From contig JAFSBM010000119.1 of the NCBI GenBank assembly GCA_017437285.1, positions 1 through 51,551 of the forward strand: a DNA stretch of 51,551 nt, in the 5' to 3' direction. Made by a program: the position numbers and the translations under genes. Source of the stretch: Ruminococcus sp. (lineage in GTDB: Bacteria > Bacillota > Clostridia > Oscillospirales > Ruminococcaceae). The notes under the pieces are model-generated. The model was given only the letters and a program-made list of their open reading frames with translations, searched no databases and was not told where the DNA came from. Shown here piece after piece: positions 3,631-51,358 of this stretch; the stretch's first letter is position 1, and every line of letters starts with the position of its first letter.

Positions 3631-4380
3631 ATGATTACAGATTGCTATGATATTAAAACAGAACCCATTATTAACATTAAGGATTTTTACGGCGAACCAA
3701 AACATATTACAGACATATGTCTGATTATCTTTTCAATAGATATACATAATCACCTGCTTAATACTTATCAATGCGAAAAGATTGGAATTCTGAGTTCCTG
3801 CAACGGTGATATAACTATCTATAAAATGAATTATAAAGGCAGAGATATTGCTTTTTATTTAACAGGTATAGGTTCTGCACTTGCGTCGGCTTTCTGCTAC
3901 GAAGCACATTGGCAGACAGGTGCCACAAAATTTATTATGTTCGGTTCCTGCGGAAGTCTTGACCGTGAAAAAACCGAAGGCAGATTTATAATTCCCACAG
4001 AAAGCTATCGTGGTGAGGGTTGTTCATACTACTATGCTGAACCCGCAGACTATATCGAAATCAAAAACAGCAAGAAATTAGCTGAAATATTTGAAAAGTT
4101 AAATATCCCCTATGTATTGGGCAAAGTCTGGACTACTGATTCTATGATAAGAGAAACTGTGGGACTTGTTGAAAAACGTAGAAAAGAGGGCTGTATTGCA
4201 GTTGAAATGGAACTGGCAGGTGTGCAGGCTTTGTGTGATTTCTACGGTTTGGAGCTTTATGATTTTCTTGAATCAGGTGATGTACTGGAATCAAGCGGTT
4301 ATGACATTGAAGGACTTCACGGAGCAAATCACAATCTGGGTAAATTATATATTGCACTTGAAACAGCATTGTTTTTATAA
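3631..4380 (+). CDS. Nucleoside phosphorylase family protein (PNP/UDP family 1)
   Basis: The 249-residue protein has the phosphorylase hallmarks: LTGIGSALASAF (78-88), the phosphate/ribose site FGSCGS (104-109) and the ribose-binding VEMELAGVQA (191-200). Members cleave a nucleoside with phosphate to give the base and ribose-1-phosphate. The sequence best resembles the uridine phosphorylase branch, but substrate cannot be assigned by eye. The start has GGAGAAATATT upstream of the ATG. The leader is built of repeats D and C, with repeat D providing the promoter. It has no operon partner; the following response regulator has its own ribosome site 200 bases later. Confidence 0.8.
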   Translation: MITDCYDIKTEPIINIKDFYGEPKHITDICLIIFSIDIHNHLLNTYQCEKIGILSSCNGDITIYKMNYKGRDIAFYLTGIGSALASAFCYEAHWQTGATKFIMFGSCGSLDREKTEGRFIIPTESYRGEGCSYYYAEPADYIEIKNSKKLAEIFEKLNIPYVLGKVWTTDSMIRETVGLVEKRRKEGCIAVEMELAGVQALCDFYGLELYDFLESGDVLESSGYDIEGLHGANHNLGKLYIALETALFL

Positions 4381-7997: not shown

Positions 7998-8159
7998 AAG
8001 GACATCTCTAAAAACCCCTTTTGAGAAAAAACAGCTATGCACGTCATCTGCTTCGTCAACCTCCCTTGGAGTGCGACAGCACGCCTTCGGAAGGTTTCCT
8101 CTCAGTTGCCGCACCTATCTGTTTTTTCTTTAATCAAACGAATTTTTAGAGATGCCCTT
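7998..8159. mobile_element. TIR element family B (MITE-like), full copy
   Basis: The ends AAGGACATCTCTAAAAA (7998-8014) and TTTTTAGAGATGCCCTT (8143-8159) are inverted with one mismatch and sit in a TTA/TAA context compatible with TA target duplication. The 128-bp interior has no ORF. A truncated inverted copy lies at 14458-14532, and lone ends occur at 5281, 945 and 34121. Confidence 0.7.
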
Positions 8160-8167
8160 AATTTCTA

Positions 8168-8196
8168 TTGCTTTTTTTGTCTGAAAATGGTATAAT
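8168..8196 (+). promoter_or_regulatory. Promoter for the repeat-solenoid ATPase
   Basis: TTGCTT (8168-8173), 17-nt spacer, TATAAT (8191-8196), about 31 bases before the start codon. Confidence 0.7.
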
Positions 8197-8226
8197 AAAA
8201 CAAAAGCTGTTAAACGAGGTGAAATG

Positions 8227-11200
8227 ATGTCGAAAGATTATGAATTTAAAATTCAGAGTTTTGCTCCGGATGAAGATTTGACAGATGATGTCAGCAAAAT
8301 GTATATGGACATGCTTGATAATCTTATGAAGAACAAGCAAGTCAGAAATATCGCTATGACAGGCGATTTGGGTATAGGTAAAAGTACGCTTATACGTAAC
8401 TATGAAAGGAAATATCCTAAATCTTTTTCCAGAAAAAAGTATGTTTATCTTTCTGTCACTGATATGAAAGTGAAATCAGCTGGAGAGGCTTTACAAAATG
8501 AACTTGAAGAACGACTGCTTAAACAGCTTCTTGTAATCTGCAATAAAGAGGAAATGATAGGCTCCCACTACCGCCCTGTTCCTGAAAAAAATGTCGGAGC
8601 GATACCATATATATTGGCAGCCATAGCCATTCTTTTAATTGCTTGGGCTTTAGGTATACTTCCTTACGCAAGTGAATACACATATATTAATATTGGTGCA
8701 GCGGTTCTTGCCGCAATTCCATTGTTCTATCTTTTTTATAAGATTTGCAAGCATTATAAATTACCCAGCTTTGAATTCAACTTCGGCGGTGAAAAAAATA
8801 ATGGCAATGCAGCAGCTGAACACACGGAGGCAGAAGAAACCCTCGACAAGAATATGACTGACATAGTTTATCTTATGGAGAGGATATACAAAAAATCCGC
8901 AAAGGTGCTTGTTGTTGAGGACCTTGACCGCTACGGTGCGGATATATGTATACCCATTATTGAAAAGTTTCGTGAGATAAATGTGCTTGTAAATCAGCGT
9001 ATACGCTTTCTTCACGGCGACAAAGAGCCTTTCCGCTTTGTGTATATTCTGAAAGATGATATCTTTTCCCAAATGATGCAGGATAAAAATAAACCTTCTG
9101 CTTCGCAATATGATATCTTCTCAGAAATGCCACAAGATGAAAACAAATCTTCTGTTCCGCCCTCAAAATATTTTGACGGTATACTGCCTGTTGTTCCTCA
9201 GCTTGGTCATGCAAACAGTGCGGATTATCTTATTGGCAAGCGTGAGTGGAACACAAAATATAATATTGAAGAAGATTTCATTTACGATGTATCAAAATAT
9301 ATTTATGATTATCGTCAGATACGTGCTATTGAAAATGAATTTAATATATTCCGTGAGGTTGCTGAGGATAAAATAAAAGACGAATCTAAAATCAATGCTA
9401 CTGAACTTATGGCATTCTGTATTTATAAGCATTTCTACCCCGAGGAATACTACAAAATCAGAACTCAGCCTGAACAGGAACTTATAAGTTATGTTTTTGA
9501 AAAAGAAATTCACGACATCACAACCGATGCAAGTGAGTATTTTATCAAAAATACAATTATATCAAATGAAGTCAAACTTCCAACTGATGATAGAAAGAAA
9601 ACTCTATTCAATAAAATTACAATCGACATATTACGATATCTTTTCCCTGATAATAGCATAAATAATGTTCTCGTCGAATTTGATAAATTAGCGAAAAATA
9701 TAACATTAGAGAACGTTTTAAAAATAGAGAAACAATTACATAAATCAAGTGCTTATTATATTGATTTCAGATTAATTCTCGCTATATACGCAGCTATATG
9801 TACATCTGAAGATTCAAGTAAAAACGAAAAAATTTTTGAATTTCAGAAAAAGCTTATGAACGAATGTGACGAAAACGCCAAAAATGCAAGCTGTGATAAT
9901 GCAAAAGAAAAATTTGCTTTTTATTACGCAATGTCTCTTGTTAATGCAACAGTAGGAATAACAGATTCTCCTGAAAGAATCAGATTAGCCGAAAAAATCA
10001 AAACAGAAATTTTTGATAAATATCAAACTCCTGAAATTGCAGAAGCTTACGCAATGGCTCTTGCTAATGCAACATGCGAAATGACAGATTCAAGGAAAAT
10101 CGAAGATATTGCTGAGAAAATCAAAACAGAAATTCTTGAAAAATATCAGACTCCTGAAATTGCCAATCAATACGCAATGGCTCTTGTTAATGCAACAGCC
10201 AAAATGACAGATTCTGATAAAATTCAAGAAAAAGCTGAAATAATCAATGAACTTCTTGAAAAATATCAGACTCCTGAAATTGCACTTCAATACGCAATGG
10301 CTCTTGTTAATGCAACAATAGGAATAACAGATTCTGATAAAATTCAAGAAAAAGTTGATATAATCAATGAACTTCTTGAAAAATATCAGACTCCTGAAAT
10401 TGCACTTCGATACGCAATGGCTCTTGTTAATGCAACAATAGGAATAACAGATTCTGATAAAATTCAAGAAAAAGCTGAAATAATCAAAAAACTTCTTGAA
10501 AAATATCAGACTCCTGAAATTGCACATTGTTATTCAGCGGCTCTTGGTAATGCAACAAATATAATGACAGATTCTGGTAAAATTCAAGAAAAAGCTGAAA
10601 TAATCAAAGAACTTCTTGAAAAATATCAGACTCCTAAAATTGCACTTGAATATGCAAATGCTCTTGTTAATGCAACATACGAAATGACAGATACAAAGAA
10701 AATCGAAGATATTGCCGAGAAAATCAAAACAGAACTTCTTGCCTTTGAAAAATATCAGACTCCTGAAATTGCACTTGAATACGCAATAGCTCTTGTTAAT
10801 GCAACAGTAAAAATACAAGATGCAACGAAAATCGTAGATATTGCTGAGAAAATCAAAACAGAAATTCTCGAAAAATATCAGACTCCTGAAATTGCACTTG
10901 AATACGCAAAGACTCTTGTTAATGCAACATACGAAATGACAGATTCTGATAAAATTCAAGAAAAAGCTGAAATAATCAATGAACTTCTTGAAAAATATCA
11001 GACTCCTGAAATTGCACTTCAATACGCAATGGCTCTTGTTAATGCAGCATTCAAAATGACAGATACAAAGAAAATCGTAGATATTGCCAAGAAAATCAAA
11101 ACAAAAATTCTTGAAAAATATCAGACTCCTGAAATTGTCAATCAATACGCAAAGGCTCTTGCTATTGTAACAGACAAAATTGAATCTGCCGAAATATGTG

Positions 11201-11577
11201 AAACTATAGCAGATAACTTCAAAAATGAATATCTATCGCAGGAAAAATATCAAACCCAAGAAATATATGAAAATTATGGTATGATACTTAACAATATCGC
11301 TGAAAGCATGGAAACAAGTGGTGAAATATTAAATATCGCTGATAGGTACTATTCTGAAATACTAATAAATGAAACATACAGAATAGATAAAATTGAAATG
11401 ATTTATACAAATATTCTCAACCTTGCAGCTAAAAAAATTCCTGACAGCATAAACGCTTCTGAGATACAAGAACGTATAAGATATTCAGAACTAAACGAAA
11501 AATTCGAAAGATTACTTAATGAACTAAATGACCCGAAGATAATTTCTGAAAAATATGGCACAAATATAACCCAATAA
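8227..11577 (+). CDS. YobI/KAP-like membrane P-loop ATPase fused to a 40-residue tandem-repeat alpha-solenoid
   Basis: The protein has about 1116 residues; of the tandem ATGs (8224, 8227) the second is better spaced from GAGGTG. Numbering from 8224: Walker A GDLGIGKST (47-55), two adjacent membrane helices (about 126-147 and 155-174), Walker B VLVVEDLDR (228-236), and the block FVYILKDDIF followed by YFDGILPVVP, which resembles YobI-like and KAP P-loop NTPases with an inserted membrane hairpin. A helical linker leads to about eleven units starting KYQTPEIA (residues 599 to about 1050), each a predicted helix-turn-helix, with diverged units at both ends. Several units are almost identical in DNA, so the array is young. 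The gene is monocistronic with its own promoter and terminator. The architecture recalls antiphage or STAND-like sensors; function is inferred, not shown. Confidence 0.75.
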   Translation: MSKDYEFKIQSFAPDEDLTDDVSKMYMDMLDNLMKNKQVRNIAMTGDLGIGKSTLIRNYERKYPKSFSRKKYVYLSVTDMKVKSAGEALQNELEERLLKQLLVICNKEEMIGSHYRPVPEKNVGAIPYILAAIAILLIAWALGILPYASEYTYINIGAAVLAAIPLFYLFYKICKHYKLPSFEFNFGGEKNNGNAAAEHTEAEETLDKNMTDIVYLMERIYKKSAKVLVVEDLDRYGADICIPIIEKFREINVLVNQRIRFLHGDKEPFRFVYILKDDIFSQMMQDKNKPSASQYDIFSEMPQDENKSSVPPSKYFDGILPVVPQLGHANSADYLIGKREWNTKYNIEEDFIYDVSKYIYDYRQIRAIENEFNIFREVAEDKIKDESKINATELMAFCIYKHFYPEEYYKIRTQPEQELISYVFEKEIHDITTDASEYFIKNTIISNEVKLPTDDRKKTLFNKITIDILRYLFPDNSINNVLVEFDKLAKNITLENVLKIEKQLHKSSAYYIDFRLILAIYAAICTSEDSSKNEKIFEFQKKLMNECDENAKNASCDNAKEKFAFYYAMSLVNATVGITDSPERIRLAEKIKTEIFDKYQTPEIAEAYAMALANATCEMTDSRKIEDIAEKIKTEILEKYQTPEIANQYAMALVNATAKMTDSDKIQEKAEIINELLEKYQTPEIALQYAMALVNATIGITDSDKIQEKVDIINELLEKYQTPEIALRYAMALVNATIGITDSDKIQEKAEIIKKLLEKYQTPEIAHCYSAALGNATNIMTDSGKIQEKAEIIKELLEKYQTPKIALEYANALVNATYEMTDTKKIEDIAEKIKTELLAFEKYQTPEIALEYAIALVNATVKIQDATKIVDIAEKIKTEILEKYQTPEIALEYAKTLVNATYEMTDSDKIQEKAEIINELLEKYQTPEIALQYAMALVNAAFKMTDTKKIVDIAKKIKTKILEKYQTPEIVNQYAKALAIVTDKIESAEICETIADNFKNEYLSQEKYQTQEIYENYGMILNNIAESMETSGEILNIADRYYSEILINETYRIDKIEMIYTNILNLAAKKIPDSINASEIQERIRYSELNEKFERLLNELNDPKIISEKYGTNITQ
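10018..11244 (+). repeat. Coding tandem repeats of 120-129 bp in the ATPase
   Basis: Units start at 10018, 10141, 10261, 10381, 10501, 10621, 10750, 10873, 10993 and 11116, with an eleventh diverged unit at 11245. Periods are 120 bp, or 123/129 bp where one or three codons are added. The second half of each unit comes in two interchangeable forms, one with DKIQEKAEII and one with KIEDIAEKIKT. Units at 10261 and 10381 differ at about five bases. Variation concentrates just after EIA and around the TDS turn. Confidence 0.9.
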
Positions 11578-11581
11578 CCCC

Positions 11582-11620
11582 ACCCCCACAGCCTGCAACT
11601 GTGGGGGTATTATTATCTTC
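11582..11620 (+). terminator. Terminator of the ATPase gene
   Basis: ACCCCCACAG (11582-11591), loop CCTGCAA, CTGTGGGGGT (11599-11608), then ATTATTATCTTC. Confidence 0.8.
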
Positions 11621-14457: not shown

Positions 14458-14532
14458 CTCCAAGGGATGTTGACGAAGCAGATGTCGTACATAGCTGTTT
14501 TTTCTCAAAAGGGGTTTTTAGAGATGCCCTTA
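14458..14532 (-). mobile_element. Truncated copy of TIR element B
   Basis: The reverse complement matches the left half of 7998-8159, including GGGGTTTTTAGAGATGCCCT at the outer end and TGACGAAGCAGATG in the interior. The other half is missing. Confidence 0.7.
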
Positions 14533-14625: not shown

Positions 14626-14654
14626 TTGATTTTTGCCAAATTATGGTGTATAAT
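14626..14654 (+). promoter_or_regulatory. Promoter for the Big2/dockerin protein
   Basis: TTGATT (14626-14631), 17-nt spacer, TATAAT (14649-14654). The -10 runs directly into the first hairpin of repeat C, as at 3505. Confidence 0.75.
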
Positions 14655-14790
14655 TATAGTGAAAGTCAAATATAATTTGACATTCACTATAATTAATTAT
14701 TTAAAGTGCCTCGCACATCCGCAAACTAAAGTTTGCTCCGTGCGGATCGGCAAATAGCAAACGCCAAAAGATTTTGTCGTTTGCTATAAT
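14653..14790 (+). repeat. Structured leader repeat C, full copy
   Basis: Hairpin 1 pairs ATTATAGTGA with TCACTATAAT and an inner GTCAAAT with ATTTGAC. Next comes AAAGTGCCTCGCAC, then ATCCGC/GCGGAT enclosing GCAAAC-TAAA-GTTTGC, then AGCAAACG/CGTTTGCT. The same unit appears shortened at 3509-3607 and inverted at 24559-24645. Confidence 0.85.
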
Positions 14791-14867
14791 TTGTTATAAA
14801 ATAAGGGAGTATATTCATAGAAGTTGTGGGAATTGGTGTGAATTACTTCCATACAGAGGGAGAAATT

Positions 14868-17075
14868 ATGAATACAAAAAAAATTACATCAGCATTTTTA
14901 GCTACAGCATTCTGCTTAGGTTCAATTATGCCTGCAACAGGATATGCGACAACATATACCGTTGATACAGGTATTGGCAATCTTTACAGCGAATCCAAAG
15001 ACAATACAGGCGATATTGACGTTAACGGTTCAATTGACGCAGCAGACGCTTCAAAAATTCTCGTTGAATATTCCGCAATTTCAACAGGAAAAACTTCTAC
15101 ACTTACTGAGGCTGAGCAAAAACGTGCTGATGTTGACAAAAGCGGCTCTATTGATTCAGTAGATGCTTCATATGTTCTTGGTTACTATGCCTATGTTTCA
15201 ACAGGCGGAGAATCATCTCTTGCCGAATTCATAGCAGGTACACATAAGCCTCCAACGACTGCTACTACTACAAAGCCTTCCACAACTACTACAAAACCTG
15301 CTACAACTACAACTAAGAAAACCACTACAACTACAGCAAAGCCTACTACAACTACTGCAAAGCCTACTACAACTACAGCAAAGCCAACAACCACTACTGC
15401 AAAGCCTACTACAACTACTGCAAAGCCTACAACTACTACTACAAAACCAACAACCACAACTACAACCACTACACAGCCTGTTGTTACAACAACTACAACT
15501 TCTGCAAAGGTTTCAGATATCCGCATTACACGTAATGAAATGCTTGTAAATGCAGGTGAAGGTGCTTTAGCGGCATATGTAACAATGCTCCCCGATAATG
15601 CGGTAAATAAGGCTGAAAAGTGGACAAGCTCCAATGAAAATATCGCCGTTGTTGACGGCGAGGGCTGGGTAATCGGTGTTTCAGAGGGTGAATGTATCAT
15701 CACTGTTACAAGCGTTGATAACCCCGATGTTTCCGCACAGATTAAGGTTACTGTAAAGGATACAAGACACGTTAAGTCAATCAAGCTTACACGCAGCGAA
15801 GTTGTTATGGAAACAGGTACAGCTGAACTTGCAGCAAGAGTAACAATGCTTCCCGAAACAGCTATAAATAAAAATGAAATATGGACAAGCTCAAAGCCTG
15901 AGGTTGCAACAGTTGACAACGAGGGCTGGGTTACTGCTCTTACTCCCGGTGTTACAGTTATCATCGTTACAAGTGAGGATAACCCTGCTGTATTCTCTCA
16001 CGTTATAGTTTCAGTTGTTGAAAAGGGTGCATCTACAACTACAACTCCACCTGCAACTACACAGACAACAACCACTACTGCACAGCCAACAACAACCACT
16101 ACAACTACTATAACATCAACTACTACATCATCAACAACTACTACCACAACTACAACTGTTCCTGCAGCAACAACTACTGTATACGTTCCCGTTCAGGAAA
16201 TTGTTGTACAGAATAAAGAAATCAAAATGACAGTTGATAGTACAGCAAAGGCTGCGATTGCAGTTCTTCCTGAAAATGCAACTGATAAATCTGTAAGGTG
16301 GATAAGCACCGATGAATCAATTGCCACAGTTGATGAAAACGGTGTAATTACAGCGAAAAAAGAGGGCAAATGCCTTATTTACGCTATCAGCAAGGATAAT
16401 CCCATAGCGTCTGCTTCTATCACTGTAGATGCAAACAACAACAAGACAGTTACTGAAATCAAGCTTGATAAATATGAAATGACTCTCCCTGTAGGCGGAA
16501 CTGATATTGCGTGGGTAACAATGCTTCCTACTGACGCTGAAAACAAGGACGAGCTTTGGGTTTCTGACAACACCGATATTGCAACTGTTGACAAAATGGG
16601 TTGGGTAACAGGTAAATCTGTAGGTGAATGTAAGATTACAGTTTACAGCGTTGATAATTCCAGTGTCAAGGCTGAAATCAAGGTTACAGTAACAAACGGA
16701 CCTGTTGAAGCTCCTAAGTATACATTCAGCCAGATTGCTCCCGGAAAGTCAACTGCAAAAGAAATCGCATTCCTCACACCATTCCCCGAAAAGGCTGACG
16801 GATTGTTCATTTTCGATTACTTCATTACTGACGCTAACGGCAAAAAGCGACTTGTTACAACACCTGTTATTGATTCTAATGACATAAATCAGGTTATAAC
16901 AATGCTTACAGCTGACACAAATCATTTCTCAGCTGAGCTTTTTGTTACAAATCTCAACACATCAAGCAGAGCAAAGATTGGTACTTACAATTTCACAATC
17001 AATCCAAGAAATGCTGAAACAGTAGATGAATCAATTACATACGCATTTGAATATATCGGCGGAATTGCAGACTGA
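14868..17075 (+). CDS. Secreted Big2-domain surface protein with N-terminal type I dockerin
   Basis: The protein has 735 residues from the ATG at 14868 (GAGGGAGA upstream); an in-frame ATG 14 codons earlier lacks a ribosome site and would spoil the signal peptide. Domains: signal peptide 1-28, dockerin at about 48-112 (GDIDVNGSIDAADASKIL and ADVDKSGSIDSVDASYVL), a Thr/Lys/Pro linker (about 128-225), then four bacterial Ig-like (Big2) domains recognised by repeated W(T/I)S and TVDxxGWVTG motifs, interrupted by a second Thr linker, and a C-terminal beta-rich domain. A dockerin next to the signal peptide instead of at the C-terminus is less usual. It is probably displayed on or assembled into a scaffoldin complex. 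No catalytic domain is seen. Confidence 0.88.
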   Translation: MNTKKITSAFLATAFCLGSIMPATGYATTYTVDTGIGNLYSESKDNTGDIDVNGSIDAADASKILVEYSAISTGKTSTLTEAEQKRADVDKSGSIDSVDASYVLGYYAYVSTGGESSLAEFIAGTHKPPTTATTTKPSTTTTKPATTTTKKTTTTTAKPTTTTAKPTTTTAKPTTTTAKPTTTTAKPTTTTTKPTTTTTTTTQPVVTTTTTSAKVSDIRITRNEMLVNAGEGALAAYVTMLPDNAVNKAEKWTSSNENIAVVDGEGWVIGVSEGECIITVTSVDNPDVSAQIKVTVKDTRHVKSIKLTRSEVVMETGTAELAARVTMLPETAINKNEIWTSSKPEVATVDNEGWVTALTPGVTVIIVTSEDNPAVFSHVIVSVVEKGASTTTTPPATTQTTTTTAQPTTTTTTTITSTTTSSTTTTTTTTVPAATTTVYVPVQEIVVQNKEIKMTVDSTAKAAIAVLPENATDKSVRWISTDESIATVDENGVITAKKEGKCLIYAISKDNPIASASITVDANNNKTVTEIKLDKYEMTLPVGGTDIAWVTMLPTDAENKDELWVSDNTDIATVDKMGWVTGKSVGECKITVYSVDNSSVKAEIKVTVTNGPVEAPKYTFSQIAPGKSTAKEIAFLTPFPEKADGLFIFDYFITDANGKKRLVTTPVIDSNDINQVITMLTADTNHFSAELFVTNLNTSSRAKIGTYNFTINPRNAETVDESITYAFEYIGGIAD

Positions 17076-49708: not shown

Positions 49709-51358
49709 ATGGCTATCAGAAAAGACCTTGACGATATGCTTAATAATCTGAAAGACGGCAAACCTCTCGAACAGCCGTCAGATACAAATGTTCAGGCGAA
49801 TGAACCCGTTCAGCAGGATGAATTCAAAAATGTGTCCGTGGATGACCTGCTCACCTCACTTTTAGGTGAGCCTTCAAGCGAATCCGCACAGGCAGATGCT
49901 CCCGCTGAGCCAATCGTCAAACCTAAGAGAAAGAAAATCGTCATTTCTCACGAATTGCCCGACTATGAAGCAATCAGACAGCAGTCACTCCGTGAGGACG
50001 CTGAACGTGCAGAAGCTGAAAAGAAAGCTGAAAGAGAGCGTCTGAAAGCTGAACGTGAGGCGGAAATGGCACGTATTCAGGCGGAGAAAAAGGCGGCAGA
50101 AGATGCCGAAAAGGCTCGCATTGAGGCTGAACGTAAAGCCGCCGCTGAGGCTGCCGAAAAGGCACGTATTGAGGCTGAGCGTAAAGCCGCTGAGGCTGCC
50201 GAAAAGGCACGTATTGAGGCTGAGCGTAAAGCCGCTGCTGAGGCTGCCGAAAAGGCTCGCATTGAGGCTGAACGTAAAGCTGCTGAGGCTGCCGAAAAGG
50301 CTCGCATTGAGGCTGAGCGTAAAGCCGCTGAGGCTGCTGAAAAGGCTCGCATTGAGGCTGAGCGTAAAGCTGCTGAGGCTGAAAAAATTTCAGTTCCCAT
50401 TGACGAAAACGAAATCCCACATTCCGACAACGACAGCATAATTGCTGACGCTGTTGCCGCTGTTTCAACTGATGAAAATACCATTGATGAGGCTGAGGAA
50501 ATCGAGGCTGAATTCAAGGAACTGCTTGAAAATGAAAACGGTTTCAGATTTTTCAAGAATAAGCCTAAAAAGGAAATCCCTCCCAAGCCTGTTGATACCG
50601 ATGAAAAATCACAGGGCGTTGCAGGAGTTCTCCACAATATTCTTGACGAAAATCCTGACGACATTATGAATAGTCAGAAATATTTCGCTGACTCCGAAAC
50701 TGAGCCTAAAAAGGGCAGATTCAAGAAGTTTTTCTATGCGTCTTTCGGCGTAATTTTCGCACTTTTAGCCTGTATCGGTCTTGTTACCGTTATTGCTAAA
50801 TCAATTTCATATTTCAACAGCTACACATCGGGAGAAACTAAAAAAGAGGGCTTTGAAGATATCCTCTACCCCGTTGTTATTATGGACATTGAGTCGTTCA
50901 ATGCCCCCACAGAGCTGCCCTCTGAGCAGGTTCTCACAGCTGCTATATGGTCAATGATTCTCGCTGATGACGTGACATTGCAGTACGAAAAGACCTTTGA
51001 CGTTGTGAAAATCCCTGCGGCTGACGTTGAATCCTACGCTGTTAAGCTTTTTGGCGAAAATCTCCCTGAGCTTACACATACAACCGTAGGCCCTGCTGAA
51101 TCCCGTTTCTACTACAACGAGGAAACAAAGTCCTACAACGTGCCAATCGCTCCCGTAACTTACACATACGCTCCAAAAATCAAGGAAGCTACAAAGAACG
51201 GCAACGAATACAAGGTTACAGTCGATTATATTGACGAGTTACCCTCTTGGCTCCCTGAAACATCTTCAAAATCCGTTCAGTTCACTCTCGTTGAAGTAAA
51301 CGGCGAATATCAGATTAAGTCAATGAATATTATCTCCCAAAGCAAGAATTCACTCTAA
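49709..51358 (+). CDS. Membrane protein with Ala/Glu-rich coiled-coil repeats
   Basis: The protein has 549 residues: a short N-terminal region with a conserved-looking [17 protein letters not shown], a charged helix (about 95-226) made of six [12 protein letters not shown] repeats, an acidic linker, one membrane helix (about 343-366) and an extracytoplasmic C-terminal domain (about 370-549) with alternating beta segments. With no N-terminal signal, the coiled coil should be cytoplasmic. I recognise no family; a wall-linked or structural role is possible. AAGGAG precedes the ATG, 59 bases after proA. Confidence 0.75.
50108..50383 (+). repeat. Coding tandem repeats of 45/48 bp
   Basis: Six copies of a 15- or 16-codon unit beginning [12 protein letters not shown], at residues 134, 150, 165, 181, 196 and 211. 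Near identity in DNA indicates recent expansion and likely length variation between strains. Confidence 0.9.

What the first reader, a model, noticed from the sequence alone, without database searches (positions are those of the whole stretch)
8227..11577. Membrane P-loop ATPase (YobI/KAP type) with a young, variable 40-residue repeat solenoid
A single gene joins a Walker A/B ATPase interrupted by a membrane hairpin to about eleven near-identical helix-turn-helix units. Neighbouring units differ by only a few bases, two versions of the second helix alternate like cassettes, and substitutions cluster at a few positions per unit. NTPase plus alpha-solenoid is the layout of antiphage and STAND-type sensors, and KAP relatives include the phage-exclusion protein PifA. 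It is flanked by TIR element B and has its own promoter and terminator, so it is a self-contained unit. A role as a recombining pathogen sensor is a hypothesis.
Basis: partly seen in the sequence, partly recalled or inferred. Interest (0 to 1): 0.82.

Follow-up and report, generated by a model that had tools for sequence, protein, structure and literature searches.

The report
Bacterial membrane ATPase with variable repeats
A gene in a gut bacterium, probably acquired from elsewhere, joins a membrane ATPase related to a known anti-phage protein to a chain of copied helical units whose differences pile up at a few positions, as in some fungal immune receptors; whether it fights phages is untested.

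Summary
One 1117-residue gene (8224-11577) has a YobI-type P-loop ATPase (PF20693, E 2.3e-58) with a membrane hairpin between its Walker motifs, then 12 helix-turn-helix units of about 40 residues. AlphaFold gives a confident alpha solenoid for the array (mean pLDDT 88.7). Replacements between the nine core units concentrate in six of 25 codons (74%; neutral mean 48%, 0 of 400 runs reach it), on helix A and around the turn; the overall pN/pS of 1.37 alone is not significant. Two versions of helix B recur, and a 113-base tract is identical in units six apart: recombination or, less welcome, misassembly. The gene is accessory: GC 33% in a 41% window, one relative with an empty site, the array in 1 of 125 genus genomes. 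Its ATPase falls in a sister group of the antiphage protein Tmn; the nearest relative carries pentapeptide repeats, another no recognised repeat. Best reading: a membrane conflict (probably antiphage) ATPase whose solenoid is a diversifying sensor, like fungal NLRs with highly conserved repeats, but with a non-STAND ATPase and no DGR template. Phage defence, ligand and variation between strains are unshown. New variant of a known kind.

The parts
8224..11577 (+). Single-gene unit, 1117 aa: YobI-like membrane ATPase + C-terminal helical repeat array
   Evidence: ORF; GC 32.7% vs 40.8% for the window
8302..9465 (+). YobI-like P-loop NTPase domain (residues 27-414)
   Evidence: PF20693 E 2.3e-58; PF20693 place 8302-9465
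8362..8385 (+). Walker A, GDLGIGKS (residues 47-54)
   Evidence: invariant G47, G50, G52, K53, S54
8584..8748 (+). Two transmembrane helices (residues about 121-175) inserted in the NTPase domain
   Evidence: 19-residue hydropathy peaks of 2.47 and 1.89; helices 127-144 and 157-177 in the full-length model, mostly pLDDT under 50 there
8905..8931 (+). Walker B region (residues 228-236, ending EDLDR)
   Evidence: invariant E232, D233, D235, R236
9916..11364 (+). Array of 12 helix-turn-helix units; 9 core units of 40-43 residues at 10021-11118, diverged ends
   Evidence: unit HMM; TRF; unit list; AlphaFold helices
10202..10314 (+). 113-base tract identical to 10934-11046, six units away
   Evidence: longest tract between neighbouring units is 65 bases
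8168..8196 (+). Possible promoter (TTGCTT, 17-base spacer, TATAAT), read by eye
   Evidence: sequence; not listed by the scan
11582..11608 (+). Intrinsic-terminator-like hairpin, 10 pairs, AT-rich tail
7998..8160 (.). MITE (terminal inverted repeats 7998-8014 / 8143-8159), genome-wide family, just upstream of the gene; context, not part of the system

Best explanation
A horizontally acquired, one-gene conflict system. The N-terminal ATPase, of a sister group to YobI/Tmn, sits in the cell membrane through its hairpin and acts as an ATP-driven switch. The C-terminal solenoid in the cytosol is the recognition part: a framework of copied alpha-alpha units with a few freely varying positions on helix A and around the A-B turn, i.e. 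a binding surface of changeable specificity. New specificities arise by duplication, loss and recombination of units and by selected replacements at those positions. Binding of a non-self protein, most likely from a phage, would release the ATPase, which would then assemble or change the membrane and stop the cell or the infection. Shown here: architecture, accessory status, kinship to Tmn, different C-terminal modules in relatives, concentration of replacements. Inferred: acquisition route, sensing, ligand, phage, membrane effect.
For: ATPase domain and hairpin. Kinship to Tmn: the PADLOC Tmn model hits the window protein at 2.4e-11 and relatives L009, L010, L012 at 1.2e-20 to 3.5e-19; an E. 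coli plasmid protein found with the window query (21% identity, E 2e-8) is full-length Tmn at 2045.6 bits. Tmn is described as a KAP-family NTPase with two unusual TM domains that inhibits T2, P1, phiVi and phiX (PMC11846954, passages). Different C-terminal modules: nearest relative L009 (clade support 96/92) has pentapeptide repeats (PF00805, 2.5e-37); L010 has no recognised repeat. Replacement pattern: columns 8, 9, 12, 19, 20, 25 hold 74% of replacements; top-six share under neutrality averages 48% (0 of 400 runs reach 74%), and with omega 0.3 56% (2 of 400); multi-base codon states 18 against means of 8.0 and 7.6 (1 of 400 in each). pN 0.53 in these columns vs 0.065 in the other 19. Helical-face clustering P 0.01-0.03. 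Solenoid fold, mean pLDDT 88.7 from a single sequence. Accessory: PF20693 in 5 of 125 genus genomes, array in 1 of 125 and 1 of 295 drawn from the order; relative G043 has the same flanks with 59 bases between matched ends instead of 3659; GC 32.7% vs flanking genes 41.2% and 44.4%. The same kind of pattern is known in fungal NLR TPR repeats (PMC4986451 section 17).
Against: No phage, ligand or activity data. Overall pN/pS of 1.37 is not beyond omega 1 (P 0.105); only the concentration is, and pS in the six columns is also high (0.29 vs 0.10 elsewhere), so part of the excess may be local saturation or mutation. The six columns were chosen after seeing the data (the simulation takes each run's own top six). 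The simulation tree ignores recombination. In helix B, version-A units have pN 0.049 and pS 0, version-B units pN 0.11 and pS 0.17, no sign of selection in the latter. Of five other window genes scanned with Pfam only, none is a recognised defence gene. No relative in 50,697 phage records and none confirmed in three viral-contig scans. The window's match to the Tmn model is weak and in pieces.
Confidence: 0.5

Rival explanations
1. Kin or non-self recognition, or a regulatory scaffold, rather than phage defence: the solenoid binds cell proteins or a competitor's protein and the ATPase relays this at the membrane.
For: Fungal receptors with this evolutionary pattern act in allorecognition (PMC4986451 and PMC10197012, passages). 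No phage link found.
Against: The closest relative with a tested function is an antiphage protein; presence in 1 of 125 genus genomes argues against a house function.
Confidence: 0.2
2. Ordinary young tandem duplication in a laterally moved gene of another role; the variable positions are simply tolerant surface sites, and identity elsewhere reflects youth.
For: Overall pN/pS not significantly above 1; raised pS in the same columns. Other young tandem repeats exist in this window.
Against: Tolerance alone rarely gives so many multi-base codon replacements (18 states, 1 of 400 neutral runs) beside a framework in which 16 of 25 columns show no silent difference.
Confidence: 0.2
3. The unit number and order are partly an assembly artefact: the assembly collapsed or chimerised the array.
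For: Draft genome of 235 contigs (read type unknown); k-mers up to 113 bases are repeated in the array; short-read assemblies of such repeats omit, create or fuse units in a fungus (PMC12222747, passages).
Against: No exact repeat longer than 113 bases, so reads of 150 bases could in principle resolve it; the frame stays open over all 12 units. It would not remove the existence of distinct units.
Confidence: 0.1

Closest known systems
Tmn (transmembrane NTPase antiphage protein; PADLOC PDLC02220)
   Same: PF20693 ATPase, membrane segments (PMC11846954 passages), single large gene, carried on plasmids
   Different: Window protein scores 40.3 bits in three stretches (only the best, 210-283, is shown) against 2045.6 bits over 1-1268 for Tmn, lies outside the 99/99 Tmn/YobI branch, and no counterpart of its repeat array was detected in Tmn
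YobI-like P-loop NTPases (PF20693), including Ruminococcus L009 with pentapeptide repeats
   Same: Same ATPase domain family; L009 is the nearest relative found (35-37% identity over the ATPase region)
   Different: C-terminal module: pentapeptide repeats in L009, none recognised in L010, helix-turn-helix solenoid here
Fungal NLRs with high internal conservation (HIC) TPR/ANK/WD repeats
   Same: Nucleotide-switch ATPase plus copied superstructure repeats, with variability concentrated at certain helix positions (PMC4986451 section 17)
   Different: Fungal ones use NACHT/NB-ARC and an N-terminal effector; here a YobI ATPase with a membrane hairpin; repeat number polymorphism unknown here; no TPR model matches
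DGR-diversified bacterial NTPase sensors, some with KAP or P-loop NTPases (PMC10907252, passages)
   Same: Bacterial NTPase with a diversified C-terminal sensor
   Different: Lectin-type sensor mutated by reverse transcription from a template repeat; here repeats, and 240 bases of array DNA match nothing else in the genome

Membership tests
YobI-like P-loop NTPase (PF20693) | Pfam score over the gathering cut-off | tested here: met
   198.9 bits vs 27
YobI-like P-loop NTPase (PF20693) | Intact Walker A and B | tested here: met
   invariant with relatives
KAP NTPase (PF07693) | Match to the Pfam model | tested here: not met
   not among 18 families up to E 10; 2 of 9 relatives scanned match it weakly, below the cut-off (L048, L050)
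KAP/YobI NTPases | Transmembrane helices inserted within the NTPase domain | tested here: met
   by hydropathy; model helices 127-144, 157-177 with pLDDT mostly under 50
Tmn | Full-length match to the Tmn model | tested here: not met
   40.3 bits in pieces; a true Tmn gives 2045.6 bits
Tmn | Falls inside the Tmn/YobI clade | tested here: not met
   99/99 branch separates 14 rows incl. Tmn from window, L009, L010, L012; midpoint root and long branches are a caution; 18 of 24 candidate loci entered the tree
Tmn | Blocks phage | not testable with these tools
   needs an experiment
STAND NTPases (NACHT, NB-ARC) | Match to NACHT or NB-ARC model | tested here: not met
   NB-ARC 15 bits vs cut-off 23.5; NACHT not listed
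HIC repeat receptors | Repeats over 85% identical over at least 100 residues | tested here: inconclusive
   mean column identity of 10 units 73%; some neighbours far higher (helix-A DNA of units 681/721 99%); the published T-reks criterion was not run
HIC repeat receptors | Variability concentrated at binding-surface positions | tested here: inconclusive
   concentration met; helix A and turn by the model's secondary structure and one helical side (P 0.01-0.03); whether that side is the concave binding face was not seen, no coordinates
HIC repeat receptors | Repeat number polymorphism between strains | not testable with these tools
   one genome per species held
DGR target | Template repeat elsewhere in the genome | tested here: not met
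   240 bases of the array match only the array itself (6 places); genome is a draft
TPR repeats | Match to TPR models or TPR structures | tested here: inconclusive
   no TPR family among 18 Pfam families, no convincing PDB sequence relative; fold hits mix TPR, ARM/HEAT and designed repeats, TM-scores under 0.5 in the 50 listed

The most novel reading that the evidence does not exclude
A bacterial immune receptor that renews its specificity without CRISPR or a retroelement: a membrane ATPase carrying a reshuffling array of copied helical units with hypervariable contact positions, a bacterial counterpart of fungal HIC NLRs built on a non-STAND ATPase in a unicellular gut commensal.
Probability: 0.3. 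Interest if true: 0.85.

Novelty: new variant of a known kind. Interest (0 to 1): 0.6.

Why it matters
How Tmn works is described as unexplored (PMC11846954, passages). A relative with a separable, diversifying repeat module would give a handle on what such membrane ATPases bind, and would extend the fungal rule (copied repeats plus variable contact positions in a nucleotide-switch receptor) to bacteria and to another ATPase class.

Tried and rejected
KAP/PifA reading: the KAP Pfam model is not listed for the protein, so the named relative is Tmn/YobI instead; PifA was not compared. STAND reading: rejected on model scores. DGR reading: rejected, no template found. TIR element as part of the system: rejected, at least 40 copies genome-wide. 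Known repeat family: Pfam hits on the array (Glyco_hydro_2_C, 24.5 bits, over its cut-off of 21; Las1 and others below theirs) and NCBIfam AfsR (22 bits against a cut-off of 1430) are taken as chance or composition. Sequence relatives of the array: only two chance-level PDB hits with the unit profile (best E 0.047) and none with the array; none in phages, none confirmed in viral contigs; this genome alone in 125 genus genomes (at most 10 candidates scored per genome) and in 295 genomes of the order. Solved relatives of the ATPase: 13 weak hits, the best a Cdc6 homologue at 0.00061 with no stretch passing on its own.

Internal repeats in relatives: of 24 loci scanned, arrays of period 30 or more lie inside the ATPase gene only in the window and in L009 (period 105, 1.9 copies); other arrays seen in L009 and L051 lie outside it; many loci end before the gene does. 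Six loci (L002, L003, L043, L019, L021, L067) gave no ORF with both motifs and were dropped from the tree.

Control repeat: the coiled-coil array at 50104-50381. In one search its units were picked by an exact residue pattern, so pN 0 was forced; units picked by 'EK' alone gave six in-array units differing only in the last residue plus a seventh outside the array, which brings pN to 0.20 and pS to 0.41. I use it only as an illustration.

Empty site: G043 is a clean empty site; G133 has no kinase match over 1e-40 and a PNP_UDP_1 gene in the slot; G128 has the two flanks on different contigs with other neighbours. So it is one clean case. The names histidine kinase and calcium ATPase for the flanking genes are by eye from their sequences, not from a family search.

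Structure: the array alone folded well; the full-length model is poor outside the array and parts of the ATPase (mean pLDDT 68.3). Foldseek for the full-length model was not obtained; VIA-align was not on the machine.
Full report
What is there. The ORF at 8224-11577 encodes 1117 residues. Residues 27-414 match PF20693, the YobI-like P-loop NTPase, at E 2.3e-58. The Walker A and B residues are invariant in the window protein and four relatives, and two hydrophobic stretches at about 121-175 lie between them. The rest includes an array: a profile of the unit finds 12 copies at 9916-11364, among them nine core units starting at residues 600, 641, 681, 721, 761, 801, 844, 885 and 925.

Structure of the array. 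Folded alone from a single sequence, residues 543-1117 give mean pLDDT 88.7 and paired helices throughout. Foldseek in the PDB returns 10 chains at E 0.001 or better: four designed alpha-alpha repeat proteins, four Vac8 chains (ARM repeats, recalled), a Fanconi complex chain and an elongation complex chain; the TPR domain of O-GlcNAc transferase is at rank 32. TM-scores are under 0.5 in all 50 rows listed of 1195. It is an alpha-alpha solenoid of TPR/ARM kind, not assignable to one class, and no sequence relative is solved.

How the units differ. In the first 25 codons of the nine core units, 16 columns keep one amino acid or have a single exception, while columns 8, 9, 12, 19, 20 and 25 carry four to seven different residues. 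These six columns hold 74% of replacement differences. In 400 neutral simulations on the units' own tree the top six columns hold 48% on average and none reaches 74%; with omega 0.3 the mean is 56% and 2 of 400 reach it. Codon states two or more bases from the commonest codon number 18, against means of 8.0 and 7.6 (1 of 400 runs each). The plain pN/pS over all 25 codons, 1.37, is not beyond neutrality (P 0.105). Within the six columns pN is 0.53 and pS 0.29; in the other 19, pN 0.065 and pS 0.10. Variation on helix A leans to one side (P 0.01 to 0.03 depending on the ends chosen). By the model's helices, columns 8, 9 and 12 are on helix A, 19 and 20 at its end or in the turn, 25 at the start of helix B (numbered by hand). 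In helix B the units of version A have pN 0.049 and pS 0, those of version B pN 0.11 and pS 0.17. The simulation ignores recombination, which is a limit.

Recombination. Helix B exists in two versions, in the order B A A A A B B A B. A 113-base tract is identical at 10202 and 10934, six units apart, whereas the best tract between neighbours is 65 bases. Shuffling codons within columns never gives 113 (0 of 2000, mean 49, maximum 87); shuffling the order of whole units reaches it in 2.6% of 5000 runs. This fits gene conversion or block duplication. It also fits misassembly: the genome is a draft of 235 contigs, and short-read assemblies of such arrays are documented as unreliable in a fungus (PMC12222747, passages). 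The count of 12 is therefore provisional.

Where it sits. The gene has 32.7% GC, its window 40.8%, the neighbouring genes 41.2% and 44.4%. In relative G043 the same two flanking genes lie side by side, with 59 bases between the matched ends where the window has 3659. G133 and G128 have other content at this place. PF20693 occurs in 5 of 125 genus genomes including this one (one a 25-bit fragment), in 16 of 394 genomes drawn from the order (10 over the cut-off) and in 7 of 398 from the phylum (5 over the cut-off). The array occurs in 1 of 125 and 1 of 295 genomes, that is in this genome alone. The ATPase part as a single query found 1 of 99. The upstream MITE has at least 40 copies in the genome.

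Kin. With the window protein, tblastn finds 614 of 72,556 plasmid records, none covering 80% of the query. One, from E. coli, is Tmn itself at 2045.6 bits over its full length; the window protein scores 40.3 bits in pieces. In a tree of 18 ATPase domains the window joins L009 (96/92) and then L010 (91/83), and a 99/99 branch sets 14 Tmn/YobI rows apart from these three and L012; long branches call for caution. L009 carries pentapeptide repeats and lies near an ArdC-type antirestriction gene and a D12 adenine methylase gene, which suggests a mobile element. L010 has no recognised C-terminal domain. So related ATPases carry different C-terminal modules, as one expects of a sensor position; three proteins are few.

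What it most likely does. Tmn is described as a KAP-family NTPase with two unusual transmembrane domains that inhibits T2, P1, phiVi and phiX by an unexplored mechanism (PMC11846954, passages). KAP ATPases have been placed in counter-invader systems, at times in the place of STAND ATPases (PMC10853773 and PMC8195603, passages), and some targets of DGRs carry KAP NTPases (PMC10907252, passages). In fungal NLRs, TPR repeats of high internal conservation vary in number and carry positively selected sites on the concave side (PMC4986451, section 17). Together, the best reading is a membrane ATPase switch with a diversifying repeat sensor in a conflict role, probably antiphage. The sensing step, ligand and outcome are inference.

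Novelty. Each part is known; their union (a Tmn-sister membrane ATPase with a hypervariable copied solenoid in a bacterium, without a DGR) did not appear in the listings of eight searches of the open-licence library; I read passages of seven of the papers and one section, nothing more, and subscription papers are mostly not held. That supports 'new variant of a known kind', not more.

Noticed in passing
G000:C2 27243-27881 (L003, L043): A second YobI-ATPase gene in the same genome, scoring higher on PF20693 over the part present and cut by the contig end; near it an ORF that looks (by eye, recalled) like a group II intron reverse transcriptase and one like a serine recombinase.
   Followed up: partly
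window 7998-8160 and TIR-like sites at 14515, 34119, 5281 and others: A 163-base MITE family with at least 40 places at 93-100% identity in the genome; nine TIR-like sites in the window (up to 3 mismatches) against 0.55 expected.
   Followed up: partly
window 14826-17075: Dockerin plus Big_2 domains (four stretches) with tandem repeats at 15264-15473, so a cellulosome-type protein by its domains.
   Followed up: no
window 50104-50381: Coiled-coil-like tandem repeat (period 45): six units differing only in the last residue compared, with silent differences, unlike the finding.
   Followed up: partly
L038 6263-7009 and window 3631-4377: A PNP_UDP_1 phosphorylase gene occupies the same slot in relative G133; the window has a PNP_UDP_1 gene at 3631-4377.
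   Followed up: no
window 14648-14788 and L038 5991-6132: A 142-base sequence that lies downstream of the cation-ATPase gene in the window lies upstream of the same gene in G133 (94% identity), perhaps another small mobile repeat.
   Followed up: no
L009 6004-8046 and 8189-13135: YobI-ATPase with pentapeptide repeats near ArdC-like and D12 methyltransferase genes in another Ruminococcus.
   Followed up: partly
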